This document shows, piece after piece, positions 1 through 7,711 of a stretch of DNA of 8,604 nt. Position 1 is the stretch's first letter. Every line of letters begins with the position of its first letter. The DNA comes from Bacillota bacterium (lineage in GTDB: Bacteria > Bacillota > Clostridia > Peptostreptococcales > Anaerovoracaceae): contig JAFYKS010000247.1 in the NCBI GenBank assembly GCA_017537495.1, positions 1-8,604 on the forward strand, written 5' to 3'. The position numbers and the translations under genes were made by a program. The notes under the pieces were generated by a model, which searched no databases, had not been told where the DNA came from, and was given only the letters and a program-made list of their open reading frames with translations.

Positions 1-508
1 CCTTGGATCCGATGTTTACAATCACATCAGTCGGTTCTCCTACAACAACATGCGGTGGGAATACTTCTCCCTGATTCACCAGATCATGAATTCCCTGGAA
101 AAGAATCTCTTCATCGTAGGTCCAGTACATTTTAATGCCCTTGCCTGCCGCCTTGATTTCATCCAGCGGTGCAACAGATGCCGCATACAGTGCTGCAGCG
201 ATGCCGCCCTTCATATCGCAGGCACCGAGGCCGTACAGTTTGCCGTCTTCTTCGGTCAGGGTAAGCGGATCATAGTTCCAGCCGTCAGCAATGTCTACCG
301 TGTCAGTATGGCCCAGGAATCCCAGTGTCGGATTCTCACCAAAACTTGCAACCATAACTTCTTTCCCGGTTTCCGGATTCTTTCTTCTGTCAACTTCGAA
401 CCCCAGAGGTGTAACAAAGTTTTCGATATAGTCCATAATTTCCTTATTGCATTTATCCTTGATCGTGTTAATTTCCACCAGGTCTTTCAAAATTTCTTTT
501 ACTGTCAT
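1..508 (-). CDS. M20 family metallopeptidase / ArgE-DapE-like deacylase, N-terminal part (runs off the window)
   Basis: This is a co-catalytic zinc amidohydrolase of the M20 family (ArgE, DapE, dipeptidases), a cytoplasmic enzyme type that cleaves a peptide or N-acyl amide bond. The 169 residues present carry the family signature in order: the metal/catalytic motif GHTDTV (His67, Asp69), the bridging aspartate in GLGACDMKGG (Asp98), the catalytic base and metal ligand pair in YDEE (Glu133, Glu134), and a further ligand in VGEPT (Glu158). The lid domain and last metal histidine lie beyond position 1; family members are usually about 380-420 residues, so more than half is missing. The ATG at 508-506 was chosen because AAAGGG lies a few bases upstream; an ATG five bases further up is out of frame and closes at once. 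It has its own promoter after the rnf terminator, so it is probably a separate unit. Family is clear; the substrate (acetylornithine, succinyl-DAP, a dipeptide or other) cannot be told. Confidence 0.9.
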   Translation of the reverse strand, partial: MTVKEILKDLVEINTIKDKCNKEIMDYIENFVTPLGFEVDRRKNPETGKEVMVASFGENPTLGFLGHTDTVDIADGWNYDPLTLTEEDGKLYGLGACDMKGGIAAALYAASVAPLDEIKAAGKGIKMYWTYDEEILFQGIHDLVNQGEVFPPHVVVGEPTDVIVNIGSK

Positions 509-575
509 GTCATCGCCCTTTCTGTATTTTTCCCTTTTCCTTACTTTGTTCAAAAAAGACTTCATTCATATTTTA

Positions 576-699: not shown

Positions 700-1560
700 T
701 TATTCAGCCTTTGGAGCTTCTGCTGCTGGTGCAGGAGCTTCTGCTGGTGCAGCAGGCTTTCTCTTTGCTCTCATGTTCAGGATAGCATTTGTAGGACATT
801 CCTTAGCACACAGACCGCAGTTCTTACACTTTTCAGGGTCGATGAATGCCAGGTTGTTTTCTACAGTGATTGCTTCGAACTTGCAGACCTTAGCACACTT
901 ACCGCAGCCGATACAAGCGTTGGAGCAGTTCTTTCTTGCAACTGCGCCCTTGTCCTTGGAGTTACACTGAACTACTACCTTGTTCTTAGCAGGAGCAATT
1001 CTGATAACGCTGTTAGGACACTGCTTTGCACAGATACCGCAGCCTACGCACAGTTCTCTGTTTACAACAGCTACGCCGTTGCAAACCTGGATTGCGCCGT
1101 AAGGACATGCAACTGCACAGTCGCCCAGACCCATACAACCGTAAGGGCAAGCGGACAGACCGCCGTACAGCTGCTTTGCAGCCTTACAAGTGGACAGACC
1201 CTGGTATTCCATCAGAGTCTTAGCTGCGTCGCTGTTACCGTTACACATTACAACTGCAACCTGAGGTTCGGAAGAATCAGCTTCTACACCCAGAACAGCA
1301 GCCAGTGCTTCAGCCAGAGCCGCACCACCTACAGGACACTTACCAGTACCAACGGATGGATCTGCACCCAGTGCGTTAGCATAGTCGTCACAACCTGCGA
1401 AACCACAGGCACCACAGTTAGCGCCAGGCAGTTCTGCTCTCAGGTTAGCTACAGTTTCATCTACTGGTACGAAGAAGATCTTGGAAGCAATGGTCAGGAC
1501 AACTGCCAGAACAAAACCGATGGCAGAAACCAGAGCTACAGGTATTAAAATACTAGACAT
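700..1560 (-). CDS. rnfB: Rnf complex subunit RnfB, polyferredoxin electron-entry subunit
   Basis: RnfB accepts electrons from reduced ferredoxin on the cytoplasmic side and passes them through iron-sulfur clusters toward the membrane core. The 286-residue product has one N-terminal membrane helix (about 4-30), then the Fe-S domain motif [12 protein letters not shown] (Cys49, 52, 57, with Cys74). A cysteine-rich middle follows (106, 125, 138, 142, 148, 152), then three CxxCxxCxxxC ferredoxin motifs: 171/174/177/181, 216/219/222/226 and 245/248/251/255. Cys160, 199 and 212 are extra. The multi-cluster arrangement is that of clostridial RnfB. The last 18 residues are an Ala/Pro/Glu-rich tail. 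AAGGAGG lies 10 nt before the ATG. It is the last gene of the operon, 20 bp after rnfA, with a terminator downstream. Arg codons are almost all AGA, as in the rest of rnf. Confidence 0.96.
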
Positions 1561-1580: not shown

Positions 1581-2153
1581 TTATACCAGTCCGCTGAAGC
1601 CCATGAAGCCCAGAGACAGGAATGCAGCAGTAACTAATGTGATAGGAACACCCTGGAAGCATGCAGGAATGGAAGTGTTTCCTTCCAGCTTGCTTCTCAT
1701 ACCGGAGAACAGTACCATTGCCAGCAGGAAACCGATACCGGCACCTGTGGAGTTCACCAGAGACTGAATGTAGTTGTAACCTTCATCGATGTTGGAGATA
1801 CATACACCCAGTACAGCACAGTTAGTAGTGATCAGTGGCAGATATACACCCAGAGCCTTATGCAGGGAAGGGATGAATTTCTTCAGTGCCATTTCTACGA
1901 ACTGTACCAGAGCAGCGATTACCAGGATGAATACGATGGTCTGTAAGTAGCCGATACCGAAACTGTTCAGTACCTGCTGAATAGGCCATGTAGCAGCAGT
2001 AGCCAGTACCATTACGAAGATAACGGCAATACCCATACCTACTGCGGAGTCCAGCTTCTTGGATACACCCAGGAACGGACAGATACCCAGGAACTGAGCT
2101 AATACGTAGTTATTTACTAAAATAACGCCTAATAAGATACTTGCTAAACCCAT
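1581..2153 (-). CDS. rnfA: Rnf complex membrane subunit RnfA
   Basis: RnfA is an integral membrane subunit that pairs with RnfE to form the core through which electrons cross the membrane; it is homologous to NqrE. The 190-residue product is almost entirely hydrophobic and fits six transmembrane helices. It begins with the family pattern NNYVLAQFLGICPFLGVSKK and has the second half-repeat around TNCAVLGVC. Cys25 and Cys112, one in each half, correspond to the positions that, with matching cysteines of RnfE/NqrD, are known to hold an intramembrane iron-sulfur cluster. The length is normal. Its ATG overlaps the rnfE stop by one base (TAATG), and AAAGGAG sits 10 nt upstream inside rnfE, so translation is probably coupled. 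Confidence 0.96.
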   Translation of the reverse strand: MGLASILLGVILVNNYVLAQFLGICPFLGVSKKLDSAVGMGIAVIFVMVLATAATWPIQQVLNSFGIGYLQTIVFILVIAALVQFVEMALKKFIPSLHKALGVYLPLITTNCAVLGVCISNIDEGYNYIQSLVNSTGAGIGFLLAMVLFSGMRSKLEGNTSIPACFQGVPITLVTAAFLSLGFMGFSGLV

Positions 2154-2854
2154 TATGCTTCAGCTCCTTTCTCTAATTCAGCCAGGCACTTTTCCTGCTG
2201 GCAGGTAGATGCCATTGCGCAGCCTGCGCAGCCGAATTCTTTCTTCTGAATAGCTTTACCGTTGGTAAAGTAGTTGATTGCAGCGATTGCACAAGCGTAT
2301 ACGAAGAAACCGCCAGGTGCCAGAGCAACAATCATGATAGGATGAGCGCTCAGGAAAGGTACTGCGATACCCAGGATGGTACCAGCACCGAATACTTCTC
2401 TGATTGCACCCATTACGCCCAGAGCCAGGGTGAAGCCCAGACCCATACCGATACCGTCCAGTGCGGAATCGAAAGCGTTATTCTTGGAAGCGAACATTTC
2501 CGCTCTTCCCAGGATGATACAGTTTACTACGATCAGCGGAATAAACAGACCCAGGGAAGCGTACAGGGAAGGCACGAATGCCTGCAGTACGAACTGTACT
2601 ACGGTTACGAAGCCCGCGATTACTACGATGTAGCATGGGATTCTTACCTTGTCAGGAATAATCTTCGCTAATAAGGAAATTACGATATTGGAGCAGATTA
2701 ATACTGCTGTAGCGGAAACACCCATACCCAGACCATTCAGGCAGGAGCTGGTTGTTGCCAGTGTAGGACAGGTACCCAGTAACAGAATCAGTACAGGGTT
2801 TTCCTTAATGATACCTTTGGTCAGGATGGCTAATTTACTTACTTTGTTTTCCAT
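2153..2854 (-). CDS. rnfE: Rnf complex membrane subunit RnfE, with cysteine-containing C-terminal tail
   Basis: RnfE is the membrane partner of RnfA (NqrD homologue) in the ferredoxin:NAD+ oxidoreductase. The 233 residues fit six transmembrane helices. The family motifs NPVLILLLGTCPTLATT (about 19-35, Cys29) and NCIILGRAEMFA (111-122, Cys112) are intact; these two cysteines match the RnfA pair thought to hold the central Fe-S cluster. After the last helix comes a roughly 33-residue soluble tail with four cysteines at 209, 212, 218 and 223. The start has AGGAGG 9 nt upstream and overlaps the rnfG stop by one base; its own stop overlaps the rnfA ATG in the same way. Identity is secure; the role of the tail is unknown to me. 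Confidence 0.96.
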   Translation of the reverse strand: MENKVSKLAILTKGIIKENPVLILLLGTCPTLATTSSCLNGLGMGVSATAVLICSNIVISLLAKIIPDKVRIPCYIVVIAGFVTVVQFVLQAFVPSLYASLGLFIPLIVVNCIILGRAEMFASKNNAFDSALDGIGMGLGFTLALGVMGAIREVFGAGTILGIAVPFLSAHPIMIVALAPGGFFVYACAIAAINYFTNGKAIQKKEFGCAGCAMASTCQQEKCLAELEKGAEA

Positions 2855-3423
2855 TAGTTAGCACCTCCTACTAATTTGTACTGTTCCAGAGCAGCACATA
2901 CACCGTAGTGTACAGCGTCGGAGGATACAGTTGCACCGGTTACGTGAGTTACACCAGCATCTGCCTTAGCAGAAGTTGCTGTGTATTCAGCCAGGCCAGC
3001 GTACTGAGCCAGGTAACCAGCGTCGTGTGCCTTGGTACCCAGACCCGGAGTATCTCCGTGTGCAGTTACCTTTACACCAGTGATTGCGCCGTTAGCGTCC
3101 AGACCGATCATTTCAGTCAGCAGACCGCCGAAGGACTTGGTCTTAACGGTTACAACCATACCTGCACCGTTGTTGGCAGTATAGCAGTCAACTACGAATA
3201 CTTTGCCTTCTTCCAGTACAGCCAGATCTCCGCTAAATGCGGTAAAATCGTCAGCTTCAGGCAGCAGTTCAGTTCTTGCTGCGTTAGCTTCTGCGATTGC
3301 GTTTGCTTCAATAATAGGAGCAGTAATAGAGTTTACGAATGCCAGCAGGCCGGTTACAACCAGACAGATAGCAACTAATACTACTACAGGTGCAATATTT
3401 TCTTTGAACATATTACTTTTCAT
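2854..3423 (-). CDS. rnfG: Rnf complex subunit RnfG, covalent FMN-binding protein
   Basis: RnfG is anchored by one N-terminal helix (about 11-31), with a soluble FMN-binding domain outside the membrane, and carries a covalently attached FMN in the electron path. In the 189-residue product the flavinylation motif TGATVSS is at 162-168, with Thr165 as the expected FMN phosphoester site. The conserved HGDTPGLGTKA block (122-132) is also present. Length is typical of the shorter clostridial form. The gene overlaps the preceding rnfD by one base (TAATG), with GGAGG 12 nt upstream. FMN attachment would need an ApbE-type flavin transferase, which is not encoded in this window. Confidence 0.95.
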   Translation of the reverse strand: MKSNMFKENIAPVVVLVAICLVVTGLLAFVNSITAPIIEANAIAEANAARTELLPEADDFTAFSGDLAVLEEGKVFVVDCYTANNGAGMVVTVKTKSFGGLLTEMIGLDANGAITGVKVTAHGDTPGLGTKAHDAGYLAQYAGLAEYTATSAKADAGVTHVTGATVSSDAVHYGVCAALEQYKLVGGAN

Positions 3424-4397
3424 TATTTCTTTGCACCTCCATACATTCTCTTCTGACAGAAGTTGTCAATCAGTGGGCACAGAACGTTCATCAGCAGGAT
3501 GGAGAAGGAAACACCTTCCGGATAGGATCCAAACAGTCTGACGATCATGGTGATTAAACCACAGCCTACACCGAAGATTACCTTACCCATAGGTAAGATT
3601 GGGGAAGTTACATAGTCAGTTGCCATGAAGAATGCACCTAACATAACACCACCCGCCAGTACGTGGAAGATACCCATCTGCAGAGGGTCGCCAGTACCAG
3701 TTGCAGCATAGTAGATAGCTGCGAATGCAAATACAGTACCGATGAATGCCGCAGGGATGATTGGGCTGATAACCTTCTTCCAGATCAGGAACAGGCCGCC
3801 GATCAGCAGTGCAACTGCAGATACTTCACCCATGGAACCGCCGTGCATACCGATGAACATGATCATGTTGCCAGGCAGGTCAGCAGCATTGCCTTCAGCC
3901 AGAATACCCAGAGGGGTAGGACCGGTTACAGCGTCAGCCTGTAAAGCCTTAGGCAGAGGCCATGTAGTCATTTCTGTTGCGAAGGAAATGAACAGAACGA
4001 TTCTTGCAGTGATAGCAGGGTTTACCAGGTTCTTACCGATACCGCCGTACAGCTGCTTAACGATGATAACTGCGATGAAGCAGCCCAGGATTGCAATCCA
4101 TAAAGGCAGACCGGAAGGAACGTTGAATGCGATCAGCATACCGGTAACTGCTGCGGACAGGTCGCCCACAGTCTGCTGCTTCTTCATCATCTTATTCCAT
4201 CCGAATTCGAATAACATGGAAGCAGCGATACATACTGCAGTCAGAACCAGAACTCTCATTCCGAATACGTATACGCTCACCAGCAGGGATGGAACCATAG
4301 CCAGGATTACCATAGACATGATCTTGGTAGTGTCCATGTTGGTTACGATGTGCGGTGAGGAGGATACAATCAGATTATTGTAAAACTTCTTATCCAT
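3423..4397 (-). CDS. rnfD: Rnf complex membrane subunit RnfD, covalent flavin carrier
   Basis: RnfD is a polytopic subunit homologous to NqrB that carries a covalent FMN and takes part in ion translocation. The 324-residue product begins with the family-typical segment VSSSPHIVTNMDT and has about nine or ten hydrophobic helices. GGIGKNLVNPAITARI (118-133) is the conserved loop. The flavinylation region reads DAVTGPTPLG (155-164), with Thr161 as the expected FMN site; the residue before it is Pro, whereas the usual motif is [S/T]GAT. MATDYVTSPI (258-267) is another conserved stretch. The ATG overlaps the rnfC stop by one base; AAAGGAGG lies 13 nt upstream, inside rnfC. Product length is normal and there is no sign of damage. 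Confidence 0.95.
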   Translation of the reverse strand: MDKKFYNNLIVSSSPHIVTNMDTTKIMSMVILAMVPSLLVSVYVFGMRVLVLTAVCIAASMLFEFGWNKMMKKQQTVGDLSAAVTGMLIAFNVPSGLPLWIAILGCFIAVIIVKQLYGGIGKNLVNPAITARIVLFISFATEMTTWPLPKALQADAVTGPTPLGILAEGNAADLPGNMIMFIGMHGGSMGEVSAVALLIGGLFLIWKKVISPIIPAAFIGTVFAFAAIYYAATGTGDPLQMGIFHVLAGGVMLGAFFMATDYVTSPILPMGKVIFGVGCGLITMIVRLFGSYPEGVSFSILLMNVLCPLIDNFCQKRMYGGAKK

Positions 4398-5425
4398 TAC
4401 TTAATTCCAGCCTCCTTTACTACGCCCTTACCCAGCTTGTTAGTGAAAGCCAGAGGTCTTCTTGCAGGACAGATGTAGGAACAGCTGCCGCATTCCATAC
4501 ACTGCATTACCTTCAGATCGCTCAGAGCCTGTGCATCTCTCATATCGTATGCCTTAGCCAGAGCAGTTGGAATCAGCTTGAACGGACATGCCTGGTGGCA
4601 CTTACCGCAGTTGATACATGCAGTTTCTTCCTTCACCAGAGCCTGAGCCTTGGAGAATGCCAGGATTGCGTTGTTGTTCTTTACGATTGGCAGTTCATCA
4701 GAGAAGATTGCACGGCCCATCATAGGACCACCCATCAGGATCTTTCTAGGTTCCTGCTTGTAGCCGCCGCAGAATTCGATTACGTCATGAATCTGAGTAC
4801 CGATTGGAGCGATTACATTGGTTGGACGTGCAACAGCATCACCGTCAACGGTCATTCTCTTAGTGATCAGAGGCATACCGTTTCTGAAGTACTGACCTAC
4901 GAAAGCAATGGTAGTTACGTTGGACAGGATGATGCCCAGGTCAGCTGGCAGTACGCCTGCGTTCATGGTCTTGCCTGTTACTTCGTATACCAGAACTCTT
5001 TCTGCACCCTTTGGATATCTAGCCTGCAGCTTGAAAGTCTTGATGTTGGTGATTCCCTTAGCTGCCAGCAGCTGATCCAGGTGCTGGATTGCATCCATCT
5101 TGTTGTCTTCGATACCGATGAAACCTTCGGACAGACCCAGGAACTTCATAACCAGCTGGCAGCCGGCAATCAGGTCTTCTGCATCTTCCAGCATCAGTCT
5201 GTGGTCAGAAGTGATGAATGGTTCACATTCTGCAGCATTGACGATTAAGGTATGTACAGCATCGATATTCTTAGGGTTAAACTTGATATGTGTAGGGAAG
5301 GAAGCGCCGCCCAGACCTACCAGGCCGGATGCTCTGATTGCCTTAACGAATTCAGGCAGATCGTTTGCAACTGGAACTTCAATTCCTTCATAAATTTCCT
5401 GCTGCTTATCGGTTTCGATAACCAC
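4397..5425 (-). CDS. rnfC: Rnf complex subunit RnfC, main C-terminal part (NADH/FMN and Fe-S domains), downstream of an in-frame TAG
   Basis: RnfC is the peripheral cytoplasmic subunit that binds FMN and NAD(H) and delivers electrons to NAD+. This 342-residue part holds the whole NuoF-like (Complex I 51 kDa) domain, with the glycine-rich loop GLVGLGGASFPTHIK at 35-49 and AAECEPF at 64-70. An SLBB-like segment follows around 190-245. Two ferredoxin motifs end it: Cys270/273/276/280 and Cys309/312/315/319. What it lacks is the N-terminal barrel-sandwich domain, which lies in the same frame upstream, beyond the TAG at 5437-5435. Joined, the gene would be 436 residues, a normal RnfC length. The GTG at 5425 is preceded by AGGA 7 nt upstream, so separate initiation is plausible; the next in-frame ATG is nearly 80 codons further on, inside the NuoF-like domain. 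Arg is AGA in ten of twelve cases, so the coding sequence looks maintained and highly expressed. The functional form of RnfC here is uncertain. Confidence 0.85.
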   Translation of the reverse strand: MVIETDKQQEIYEGIEVPVANDLPEFVKAIRASGLVGLGGASFPTHIKFNPKNIDAVHTLIVNAAECEPFITSDHRLMLEDAEDLIAGCQLVMKFLGLSEGFIGIEDNKMDAIQHLDQLLAAKGITNIKTFKLQARYPKGAERVLVYEVTGKTMNAGVLPADLGIILSNVTTIAFVGQYFRNGMPLITKRMTVDGDAVARPTNVIAPIGTQIHDVIEFCGGYKQEPRKILMGGPMMGRAIFSDELPIVKNNNAILAFSKAQALVKEETACINCGKCHQACPFKLIPTALAKAYDMRDAQALSDLKVMQCMECGSCSYICPARRPLAFTNKLGKGVVKEAGIK

Positions 5426-5437
5426 CAGAGTGTCCTA
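5423..5437 (-). other. In-frame TAG overlapping an AGGA/GTG restart site within rnfC
   Basis: On the minus strand the junction reads GGC TAG GAC ACT CTG GTG, all in the rnfC frame. The TAG (5437-5435) shares its last two bases with AGGA (5436-5433), which stands 7 nt before GTG (5425-5423). That is a workable Shine-Dalgarno spacing for re-initiation by ribosomes ending at the TAG. There is no insertion or deletion: one base change (for example CAG to TAG) explains the stop. Whether it acts as stop plus restart, as a decoded UAG, or is an error cannot be decided from the sequence. Confidence 0.6.
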
Positions 5438-5707
5438 GCCGCCGTTTGCAGAACGCACTTCTTCGATACCGGTTACAGTACCGGAAACGGAAGAGTGAAT
5501 TGGTGCGCTGACGAAAGCTTCAGTGTCGCCCAGGAGCTGACCTACTTTAACGTAGTCTCCCTTCTTCACTAAAGGCTTACAAGGTGCTCCGATATGCTGA
5601 GACATGGAAATTTTTACGACATCAGGTACAGGCATTACTTCTGTAGCACAACCAGCAGTGTGCTTGTAATGGTGCACGTGAATGCTCGGTAAATGTTTTT
5701 GACTCAT
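5435..5707 (-). CDS. rnfC: RnfC N-terminal part (barrel-sandwich domain), ending at an in-frame TAG
   Basis: These 90 residues are the start of RnfC. The segment SQHIGAPCKPLVKKGDYVKV, followed by VGQLLGDTEAFVSAPIHSSV and SGTV, is the hallmark RnfC_N sequence. The His-rich beginning (HVHHYKH) sits where other RnfC proteins have GGxHPPHxKE-like residues. The reading frame stops at TAG (5437-5435). It continues in the same frame as D-T-L-V-V-I-E-T-D, which is exactly how the RnfC_N domain normally ends (VVIE-D), so the break falls before the last strand of that domain. The ATG at 5707 has a GGAAGG element 11 nt upstream and a good promoter further up. Alone, this fragment lacks every cofactor site. 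It may fold with the C-terminal part, may be joined to it by UAG readthrough, or may be the remnant of a nonsense mutation. Confidence 0.8.
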   Translation of the reverse strand: MSQKHLPSIHVHHYKHTAGCATEVMPVPDVVKISMSQHIGAPCKPLVKKGDYVKVGQLLGDTEAFVSAPIHSSVSGTVTGIEEVRSANGG

Positions 5708-5956: not shown

Positions 5957-7711
5957 ATGAAACGACTGCTGACAATCATACTTATCTTTACCCTTTGTTT
6001 CACCGCTGCGGTACCCGCTCTGGCTGCAGAAGTCAATGCAGATATGATTCCGCTTGATTCTGCAGATATAACCATCGAAGAGGGTAAGACCTATTCCATC
6101 TCATCAAAAGAAGAACTCTTCAATTTCAGAGACATCGTCAACAGCGGCAGCACCTTTAAAGGTTCCTGCGTTCAGCTTCTTGCTGACATCGCCGTAAACG
6201 AAGGAAGCATTACCTGCGGCGGCAAAAATGAGGAATACAATCCTTATCTTGACAACCAGCTCATAACGTCCACAAGCGATATCATCTGGTGGATTCCAAT
6301 CGGCCGGCATAGCGGTCAGACCACCGCTGTCTTCAGCGGAACTTTCGAGGGCAATAACCATACCATATCCGGTCTGATCTACGACTACAGCAGCGGAGGC
6401 GGCATGGCTGTCTTCGAACGCTGCGACGGTGCCGTAATCCGCAATTTAAAGGTAGAAAACTTCTATTTCCGGGCACATAACTGTGCGGGAATCTGTGCCA
6501 AAGCCTGGGGAGGTACGATTATAGAAAATTGTTTTGCTGCAGGTTTCATTCCAAATCGCGGTCTGTCCGGCGGCATTGTCGGATACGTTTCACCAGCTTA
6601 TGTTCAGTCCGGATTCGCCTGTCAGATTATCAACTGCATCAGTGCATGTACGATTTTCGAAGGTTCCTACCACAGCAGCGGCATCAGCACCAGCCATAAC
6701 ACAGGCGGAATCGTCGGCCTGTGTGACAACACCGAAGTAATCGGGTGCGTAAATCACGGTAAAATTTCCGGCACAGAAAACATCGGTGCCATCATCGGCA
6801 GTTCCGGTGAAAATGTCACCATGACAGACTGTGAGAACCATGGCACTGCTGCAGGTCCTGATTACATAAACCGCCTGATTGGGAATCAGCCGGACACCGG
6901 ACAGCATATTCATGTTTATGACACTTCCAAGTACGCATACGATGAAACAGCACATTTCCACGCCTGCAGCTGCGGCGATGCAATTAACAGAGCTGTACAC
7001 TCCTTCACGTACAGAACGCTCCGTGAACCATCCAAAACGCAGGACGGCATTCAGAGAAAAACATGCCTCGTGTGCAAAGCCTACTTTGATGAAATCCTGA
7101 AAAAAGAGCCTTCCTACACACTGGAAATCGAAAACAGAGACCTTATGGACTATGTTGATTTATGGAACAGTTCCACGTTCCATATTGCAGCAAAAGAAGG
7201 CGCACACATTAAAGATGTCATCCTCAATGGTGTCTCCCTCGGTCCGGTAACAAAAGTTTCTTTCCAGGACGGCGATATCATTAAAATTATCTTTGCCTCC
7301 AACAGCCAGCCAGAGGAAACTCCGAAGCAGGACAAAGAACTGTCCGCTGCAGAAAAAAACCGTCTCATCAAGGGAATCCAGGCCACTACAATCAAAGCCT
7401 CTTCTGTAAACGTCCACAACGGTTCCATCCGCATCACCTGGAAGAAATCTCCTGGCTACAAAGTGGACTATTATCAGATTTACCGTTCCACCAAGAAGAA
7501 CAGCGGCTATGGAAAGAAAGCATTCTATACCACCAAAACAGGCAAAGCCACAACCTACACCAACAGCAAAAGCCTGAAGGTGGGAACCCGCTACTACTAT
7601 AAAGTCCGCGGTGTTCGTGTTATCGACGGCAAGAAATACTACACCCAGTATTCCAACAAGGCGAACCGCCGTGCACAGGCACCAATCGTCCGTGCCAACC
7701 CGCCGTATTAA
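5957..7711 (+). CDS. Secreted GLUG-repeat beta-helix protein with Cys/His module and C-terminal fibronectin-III-like domain
   Basis: The 584-residue protein begins with a signal peptide (about 1-23, cleavage after VPALA-A). Residues about 45-310 form a GLUG-type right-handed beta-helix: FSGTFEGNNHTISGL (126-140) is the classic opening, then coils around CAGICAKAWG, SGGIVGYVSP, TGGIVGLCDN and NIGAIIGSSG. Residues 317-375 form a Cys/His module (His333, His335, Cys337, Cys339, His348, Cys370, Cys373) of a kind seen in many clostridial surface proteins. Residues 385-448 look like a small beta domain. After a charged linker, about 473-573 is a fibronectin-III-like domain with the WKKSPGYKVDYYQIYRSTKK pattern. 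There is no LPXTG motif or C-terminal anchor, so it is probably released or held non-covalently. AAGGAG lies 8 nt before the ATG. The gene is divergent from rnf and monocistronic. Such proteins are thought to act in adhesion or glycan contact; no enzyme motif is visible. Its Arg codons are mixed CGN/AGA, unlike rnf. Confidence 0.85.
   Translation: MKRLLTIILIFTLCFTAAVPALAAEVNADMIPLDSADITIEEGKTYSISSKEELFNFRDIVNSGSTFKGSCVQLLADIAVNEGSITCGGKNEEYNPYLDNQLITSTSDIIWWIPIGRHSGQTTAVFSGTFEGNNHTISGLIYDYSSGGGMAVFERCDGAVIRNLKVENFYFRAHNCAGICAKAWGGTIIENCFAAGFIPNRGLSGGIVGYVSPAYVQSGFACQIINCISACTIFEGSYHSSGISTSHNTGGIVGLCDNTEVIGCVNHGKISGTENIGAIIGSSGENVTMTDCENHGTAAGPDYINRLIGNQPDTGQHIHVYDTSKYAYDETAHFHACSCGDAINRAVHSFTYRTLREPSKTQDGIQRKTCLVCKAYFDEILKKEPSYTLEIENRDLMDYVDLWNSSTFHIAAKEGAHIKDVILNGVSLGPVTKVSFQDGDIIKIIFASNSQPEETPKQDKELSAAEKNRLIKGIQATTIKASSVNVHNGSIRITWKKSPGYKVDYYQIYRSTKKNSGYGKKAFYTTKTGKATTYTNSKSLKVGTRYYYKVRGVRVIDGKKYYTQYSNKANRRAQAPIVRANPPY

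What the first reader, a model, noticed from the sequence alone, without database searches (positions are those of the whole stretch)
4397..5707. rnfC is interrupted by an in-frame TAG with no frameshift
Codon 91 of an otherwise intact 436-codon rnfC is TAG (5437-5435). The reading frame is the same on both sides and conserved RnfC sequence continues directly (SGTV..., then VVIETD). RnfC is the NADH-binding subunit, so a true null would break the operon's known function, yet the downstream part and the five other subunits look intact with strongly biased codon use. The options are UAG decoded as an amino acid (suppressor tRNA, pyrrolysine or a reassigned codon), a two-piece RnfC, a recent nonsense mutation (for example CAG to TAG), or a read/assembly error.
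Basis: partly seen in the sequence, partly recalled or inferred. Interest (0 to 1): 0.75.

Follow-up and report, generated by a model that had tools for sequence, protein, structure and literature searches.

The report
Stray stop codon in draft rnfC
One gene of an ordinary bacterial energy-conserving complex carries a single stop codon that every compared relative lacks, including one with an otherwise identical protein, so it is likely a base error in a draft genome or a recent one-off mutation and not a new way of reading the genetic code.

Summary
The TAG is there: minus strand, 5437-5435, codon 91 of an otherwise open 436-residue rnfC heading a complete rnfCDGEAB operon. It is not conserved. 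Of 106 distinct rnfC loci compared, only the window has a stop there. All 120 listed proteins (of 7991 hits) have a sense residue, 76 of them lysine; one, P0001, equals the window's product except at this position. Against the nearest relative held, G002, rnfC shows 17 synonymous codon changes, one E/D change and the TAG, with no indel. Recoding has no support: TAG ends 23 of 147 long ORFs in 64 sampled contigs, release factor 1 is present, PylS is under its cut-off in 5 of 5 genus genomes, and no CUA-anticodon tRNA was seen. Against my preference for an error: 14 of 32 other family genomes show no clear rnfC, so real loss is plausible. The genome is a fragmented draft (475 contigs, 7.66% contamination). 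Best reading: a one-base consensus error (0.57); next: a very recent nonsense mutation (0.37). Reads would decide. Ordinary.

The parts
4397..5707 (-). rnfC frame, 436 positions plus TAA, interrupted once by TAG
5435..5437 (-). in-frame TAG at codon 91; a sense codon in the 105 other distinct rnfC loci compared
5438..5707 (-). 90-residue upstream piece, most of the RnfC_N domain (profile positions 7-88 of 101)
4400..5434 (-). 345-residue downstream piece: FMN-binding 51K-like, SLBB and 4Fe-4S domains
5423..5425 (-). GTG, first possible restart after the TAG (342 codons), with AGGA seven bases upstream; the same AGGA and GTG are in the uninterrupted relative G002
   Evidence: restart itself untested
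3423..4397 (-). rnfD, intact
2854..3423 (-). rnfG, intact
2153..2854 (-). rnfE, intact
1581..2153 (-). rnfA, intact
700..1560 (-). rnfB, intact

Best explanation
The TAG is a one-base difference found in this one contig alone among everything compared, and it is likely a consensus (read or assembly) error in a fragmented draft genome that sits in an otherwise intact, ordinary rnfC. Shown: the TAG is private among the loci compared, relatives have a sense codon at a variable position, both sides of the gene are conserved, and TAG use, release factor 1 and the tRNAs seen look standard. Inferred: that it is an error and not a rare real variant. On this reading the living cell would make a normal 436-residue RnfC, the FMN-carrying, NADH-binding subunit of the Rnf ferredoxin:NAD+ oxidoreductase.
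For: Only the window has a stop at the site among 106 distinct rnfC loci. All 120 listed proteins (of 7991 hits) have a sense residue there, 76 of them K. P0001 (436 aa, on 2 contigs, source not shown) differs from the window's product at this position only, so the change is younger than any other protein difference from it. rnfC against G002 shows 17 synonymous codons, one E/D change and the TAG; the six rnf genes show no indel and no other stop. rnfC is uninterrupted in the 4 other genus genomes held. The genome is a draft of 475 contigs, 90.06% complete, 7.66% contaminated.
Against: No reads are held, so the error was not seen directly. The window has no ambiguous letters, and no second disruption in the six rnf genes marks it as low quality. 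A real, very recent nonsense mutation predicts the same comparisons. rnfC is not universal in the family: 14 of 32 other family genomes gave no match better than E 1e-33 (several are incomplete drafts, but G006 and G009 are rated 100 and 95% complete), so losing it is possible in this group. The rate of other lone stops in this genome could not be measured.
Confidence: 0.57

Rival explanations
1. A real and very recent nonsense mutation, fixed or at some frequency in the sampled strain, that would end RnfC after 90 residues and so be expected to disable NAD+ reduction by its Rnf complex.
For: Same comparative evidence: private to the window, with the rest of the gene still looking constrained. 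14 of 32 other family genomes show no clear rnfC, so the gene can be lost. No second full-length rnfC was found in the held genome.
Against: rnfC is uninterrupted in the 4 other genus genomes held. No listed protein shows a break at the site, and no other locus has the stop. No second disabling change is seen in the six rnf genes.
Confidence: 0.37
2. The TAG is real, and RnfC would be made in two pieces by translational restart at the GTG at 5425, nine bases past the stop, the pieces joining into a working subunit.
For: An AGGA lies seven bases before the GTG, and the break falls in the first beta subdomain, ahead of the FMN and iron-sulfur domains (subdomain limits 30-101 in C. tetanomorphum RnfC, PMC9588780, passages).
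Against: The same AGGA and GTG occur in the uninterrupted relative G002, so they are not an adaptation to the stop. The break is inside a folded domain, not between domains. None of the 120 proteins listed is as short as 350 aa, and none of the 120 listed ends at the site.
Confidence: 0.04
3. UAG is read as an amino acid (suppressor tRNA, pyrrolysine or reassignment).
For: The frame is open on both sides and conserved.
Against: TAG ends 23 of 147 ORFs of at least 200 codons in 64 sampled contigs. Release factor 1 is over its cut-off in 3 of 3 genomes searched. PylS is below its cut-off in 5 of 5. No CUA anticodon among the 15 of 15 matched tRNAs of this genome or the 52 called of 55 matched in two sister genomes, the other 3 lying at contig ends. 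The site is variable, with 14 residue types. No relative compared uses TAG there.
Confidence: 0.02

Closest known systems
Rnf ferredoxin:NAD+ oxidoreductase, subunit RnfC (solved: 7zc6 chain C; 9eri chain C; 8ahx chain C)
   Same: The uninterrupted relative P0001 aligns over nearly its full length (7zc6: E 2e-114, query residues 9-430). The domains of RnfC are present in order, and the operon is complete.
   Different: Only the TAG at codon 91, which no relative compared here shares.
Pyrrolysine or other in-frame UAG recoding
   Same: An in-frame TAG inside a conserved frame.
   Different: No PylS over its cut-off, no CUA tRNA seen, TAG in normal use as a stop, codon not conserved, site variable.
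Base errors or private nonsense variants in draft metagenome genomes (recalled as a general kind; the one paper listed is unrelated)
   Same: A one-base private change in a fragmented draft, with the gene otherwise conserved.
   Different: Nothing found that differs, but reads are not held.

Membership tests
RnfC (NADH and FMN subunit of Rnf) | RnfC_N, Complex1_51K, SLBB and 4Fe-4S dicluster domains in order | tested here: met
   the two pieces scanned apart
RnfC (NADH and FMN subunit of Rnf) | gene in an operon with rnfD, G, E, A and B | tested here: met
RnfC (NADH and FMN subunit of Rnf) | single continuous reading frame | tested here: not met
   one TAG in this contig; continuous in G001-G004
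UAG recoding (pyrrolysine) | pyrrolysyl-tRNA synthetase in the genome | tested here: not met
   weak matches in 5 of 5 genus genomes, 0 of 5 over the cut-off; matches also in 13 of 14 control genomes, 1 of them over the cut-off. Only the PylS C-terminal family was searched; PylB, C and D were not.
UAG recoding (pyrrolysine) | tRNA with anticodon CUA | tested here: inconclusive
   none of 15 in this genome, but 15 tRNAs are too few for a full set; none of the 52 called of 55 matched in two sister genomes. An unusual pyrrolysine tRNA could escape the general tRNA model.
UAG recoding (pyrrolysine) | TAG conserved at the site in relatives | tested here: not met
   1 of 106 distinct loci, the window itself
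UAG reassigned genome-wide | TAG rare or absent as a terminator, release factor 1 lost | tested here: not met
   23 TAG, 23 TGA, 101 TAA; RF1 present
consensus error in a draft genome | reads disagree with the consensus at the base | not testable with these tools
   no reads held

The most novel reading that the evidence does not exclude
The TAG is real in this strain and RnfC is a two-piece subunit: a 90-residue N-terminal cap and a 342-residue catalytic piece made by restart at the GTG just past the stop, assembling into a working Rnf complex.
Probability: 0.03. Interest if true: 0.35.

Novelty: not a real feature. Interest (0 to 1): 0.06.

Why it matters
It matters mainly as a caution. A lone in-frame stop in a draft genome says little until relatives are compared, and here relatives leave nothing for recoding to explain. 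If the mutation were real, it would mean a strain living without the NADH module of its Rnf complex, which is of modest interest for energy metabolism.

Tried and rejected
Pyrrolysine: the PylS profile over the genus gave only weak matches under the cut-off (5 of 5 genomes), and matches also in 13 of 14 control genomes, one of them over the cut-off; PylB, C and D were not searched. Suppressor tRNA: Rfam tRNA search and ARAGORN, none with CUA. In one search I gave ARAGORN 23 of the 30 sister loci (the other 7 lie inside those) and the places not yet covered; 3 of 55 matches, at contig ends, were not called. The tag anticodon in L249 is a leucine tRNA that reads CUA, not UAG. Genome-wide reassignment: not supported, by stop usage and RF1. 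The "1 TAA" in the RF1 rows fits the alignment running a few codons past RF1's own stop towards the next gene.

Backup rnfC copy: none found; the three other own-genome matches are partial, at 30-33% identity. Split rnfC elsewhere: none among the 120 listed of 7991 hits or the 120 listed of 244, checked; members hidden inside clusters could not be seen.

A home-made scan for other single-stop splits by codon use (580 candidate places, printed list cut) did not separate coding from non-coding frames and was discarded. Plasmid search: no match. Paper searches: 4 papers listed on RnfC structure (two of them seen in passages), 1 unrelated paper (listing only), 0 papers holding rnfC, pseudogene and premature stop codon together.

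Full report
Observation. The minus strand of the window reads an rnfC frame from ATG at 5707 to TAA at 4397. Codon 91 (5437-5435) is TAG; nothing else interrupts it. The first 90 residues match RnfC_N and the remaining 345 match the 51K FMN-binding, SLBB and 4Fe-4S families. rnfD, rnfG, rnfE, rnfA and rnfB follow, all open, each ending in TAA, each matching its family.

Relatives. The window lies on contig C254 of a draft genome of 2,103,421 bases in 475 contigs, 90.06% complete and 7.66% contaminated. The four other genomes of its genus that are held have an uninterrupted rnfC. The nearest, G002, has a lysine codon at the site. For a wider count I took the 29 relatives' loci returned (59 of 61 genomes had some match, own included; 30 loci were returned, one of them the window) and the 80 loci kept of 179, plus the window: 110 loci, 106 distinct after 4 duplicates were dropped. 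Only the window has a stop at the site. For 94 of the 106, window included, the alignment starts right at the site. For the other 12 the position was extrapolated by up to five codons (offsets), so their residue is less certain, but none is a stop. All 120 listed proteins of the protein search (of 7991 hits) have a sense residue: K in 76, I in 21, M in 14, N in 4, F in 2, and A, V, T in one each. P0001, a 436-residue protein on two contigs whose source is not shown, differs from the window's product at this one position only. The 40 best hits all have lysine, while the wider set of loci holds 14 residue types, so no particular residue is needed there.

Selection. Between the window and G002 the rnfC genes differ at 19 codons: 17 synonymous, one E-to-D, and the TAG. 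There is no indel in any of the six rnf genes and no other stop. The gene looks constrained up to the present, so the TAG is either very young or not real.

A result that favours a real loss. rnfC is not universal in the family. In one search, 18 of 32 family genomes outside the genus have a clear match (E 1e-94 or better), and 14 have none better than E 1e-33 (two of these have only distant relatives near 33% identity, ten only weak matches, two no match). Several of the 14 are incomplete drafts, but G006 and G009 are rated 100 and 95% complete. So a strain on its way to losing Rnf would not be strange. All 24 genomes of the order outside the family have a match at E 3e-78 or better.

Decoding. 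In 64 contigs of this genome (289,013 bases, window included), non-overlapping ORFs of at least 200 codons end in TAA 101 times, TGA 23 and TAG 23 (mechanical ORFs, not curated genes). Release factor 1, which reads UAG (recalled), is present here and in both sister genomes searched. No PylS reaches its cut-off in any of 5 genus genomes. None of the 15 tRNAs found in this genome has a CUA anticodon. Since 15 is far fewer than a bacterium needs, two sister genomes were checked: 52 of 55 matched tRNAs were called, none with CUA; the other three lie at contig ends. UAG recoding is therefore unsupported, and with the codon not conserved there is nothing for it to explain.

Two-piece RnfC. A GTG nine bases past the stop has AGGA seven bases before it, so a restart is conceivable. 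But the same AGGA and GTG are in the uninterrupted G002 gene. In C. tetanomorphum RnfC the first beta subdomain spans residues 30-101 (PMC9588780, passages), and residue 91 of P0001 aligns within it, so the break would cut a folded unit. No split gene was among the hits listed.

What it would do. RnfC is the NADH-binding, FMN-carrying subunit, held to RnfD by RnfD's N- and C-terminal arms (PMC9588780 and PMC11889175, passages only). A true stop at residue 90 would be expected to remove NAD+ reduction. No second full rnfC was found in this genome.

Verdict. The sequence observation is correct and the exciting readings fail. A private one-base change remains. Between a consensus error and a real recent mutation the tools cannot decide; I favour error (0.57 against 0.37) because the draft is fragmented, an otherwise identical protein exists with a sense residue, and the other genus genomes held keep an uninterrupted rnfC.

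Noticed in passing
window 5957-7711 (+) against L133 1441-3126: Between the same two neighbours (an Orn/Lys/Arg decarboxylase-like gene and rnfC) the window has a 584-residue protein with a weak fn3 match on the strand opposite to rnfC, while G002 has a 561-residue amidohydrolase-like gene (name recalled from its sequence, not from a call): a gene swap at a conserved site.
   Followed up: partly
window 2-565 (-): The gene after rnfB in the window (peptidase M20, cut by the contig end) has no match in the G002 contig C133, so synteny ends there too.
   Followed up: no
window 2854-3423 (-): rnfG differs from G002 by 9 non-synonymous against 9 synonymous codons, more protein change than any other rnf gene, with three changes at residues 150-154.
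   Followed up: no
G000 genome: Only 15 tRNAs found in a genome rated 90% complete: the draft is missing much of its tRNA set.
   Followed up: no
family of the window's genome (handles G005-G036): rnfC is patchy: 14 of 32 family genomes outside the genus have no clear match, including some rated 94-100% complete, which hints at repeated loss of Rnf in this family.
   Followed up: no
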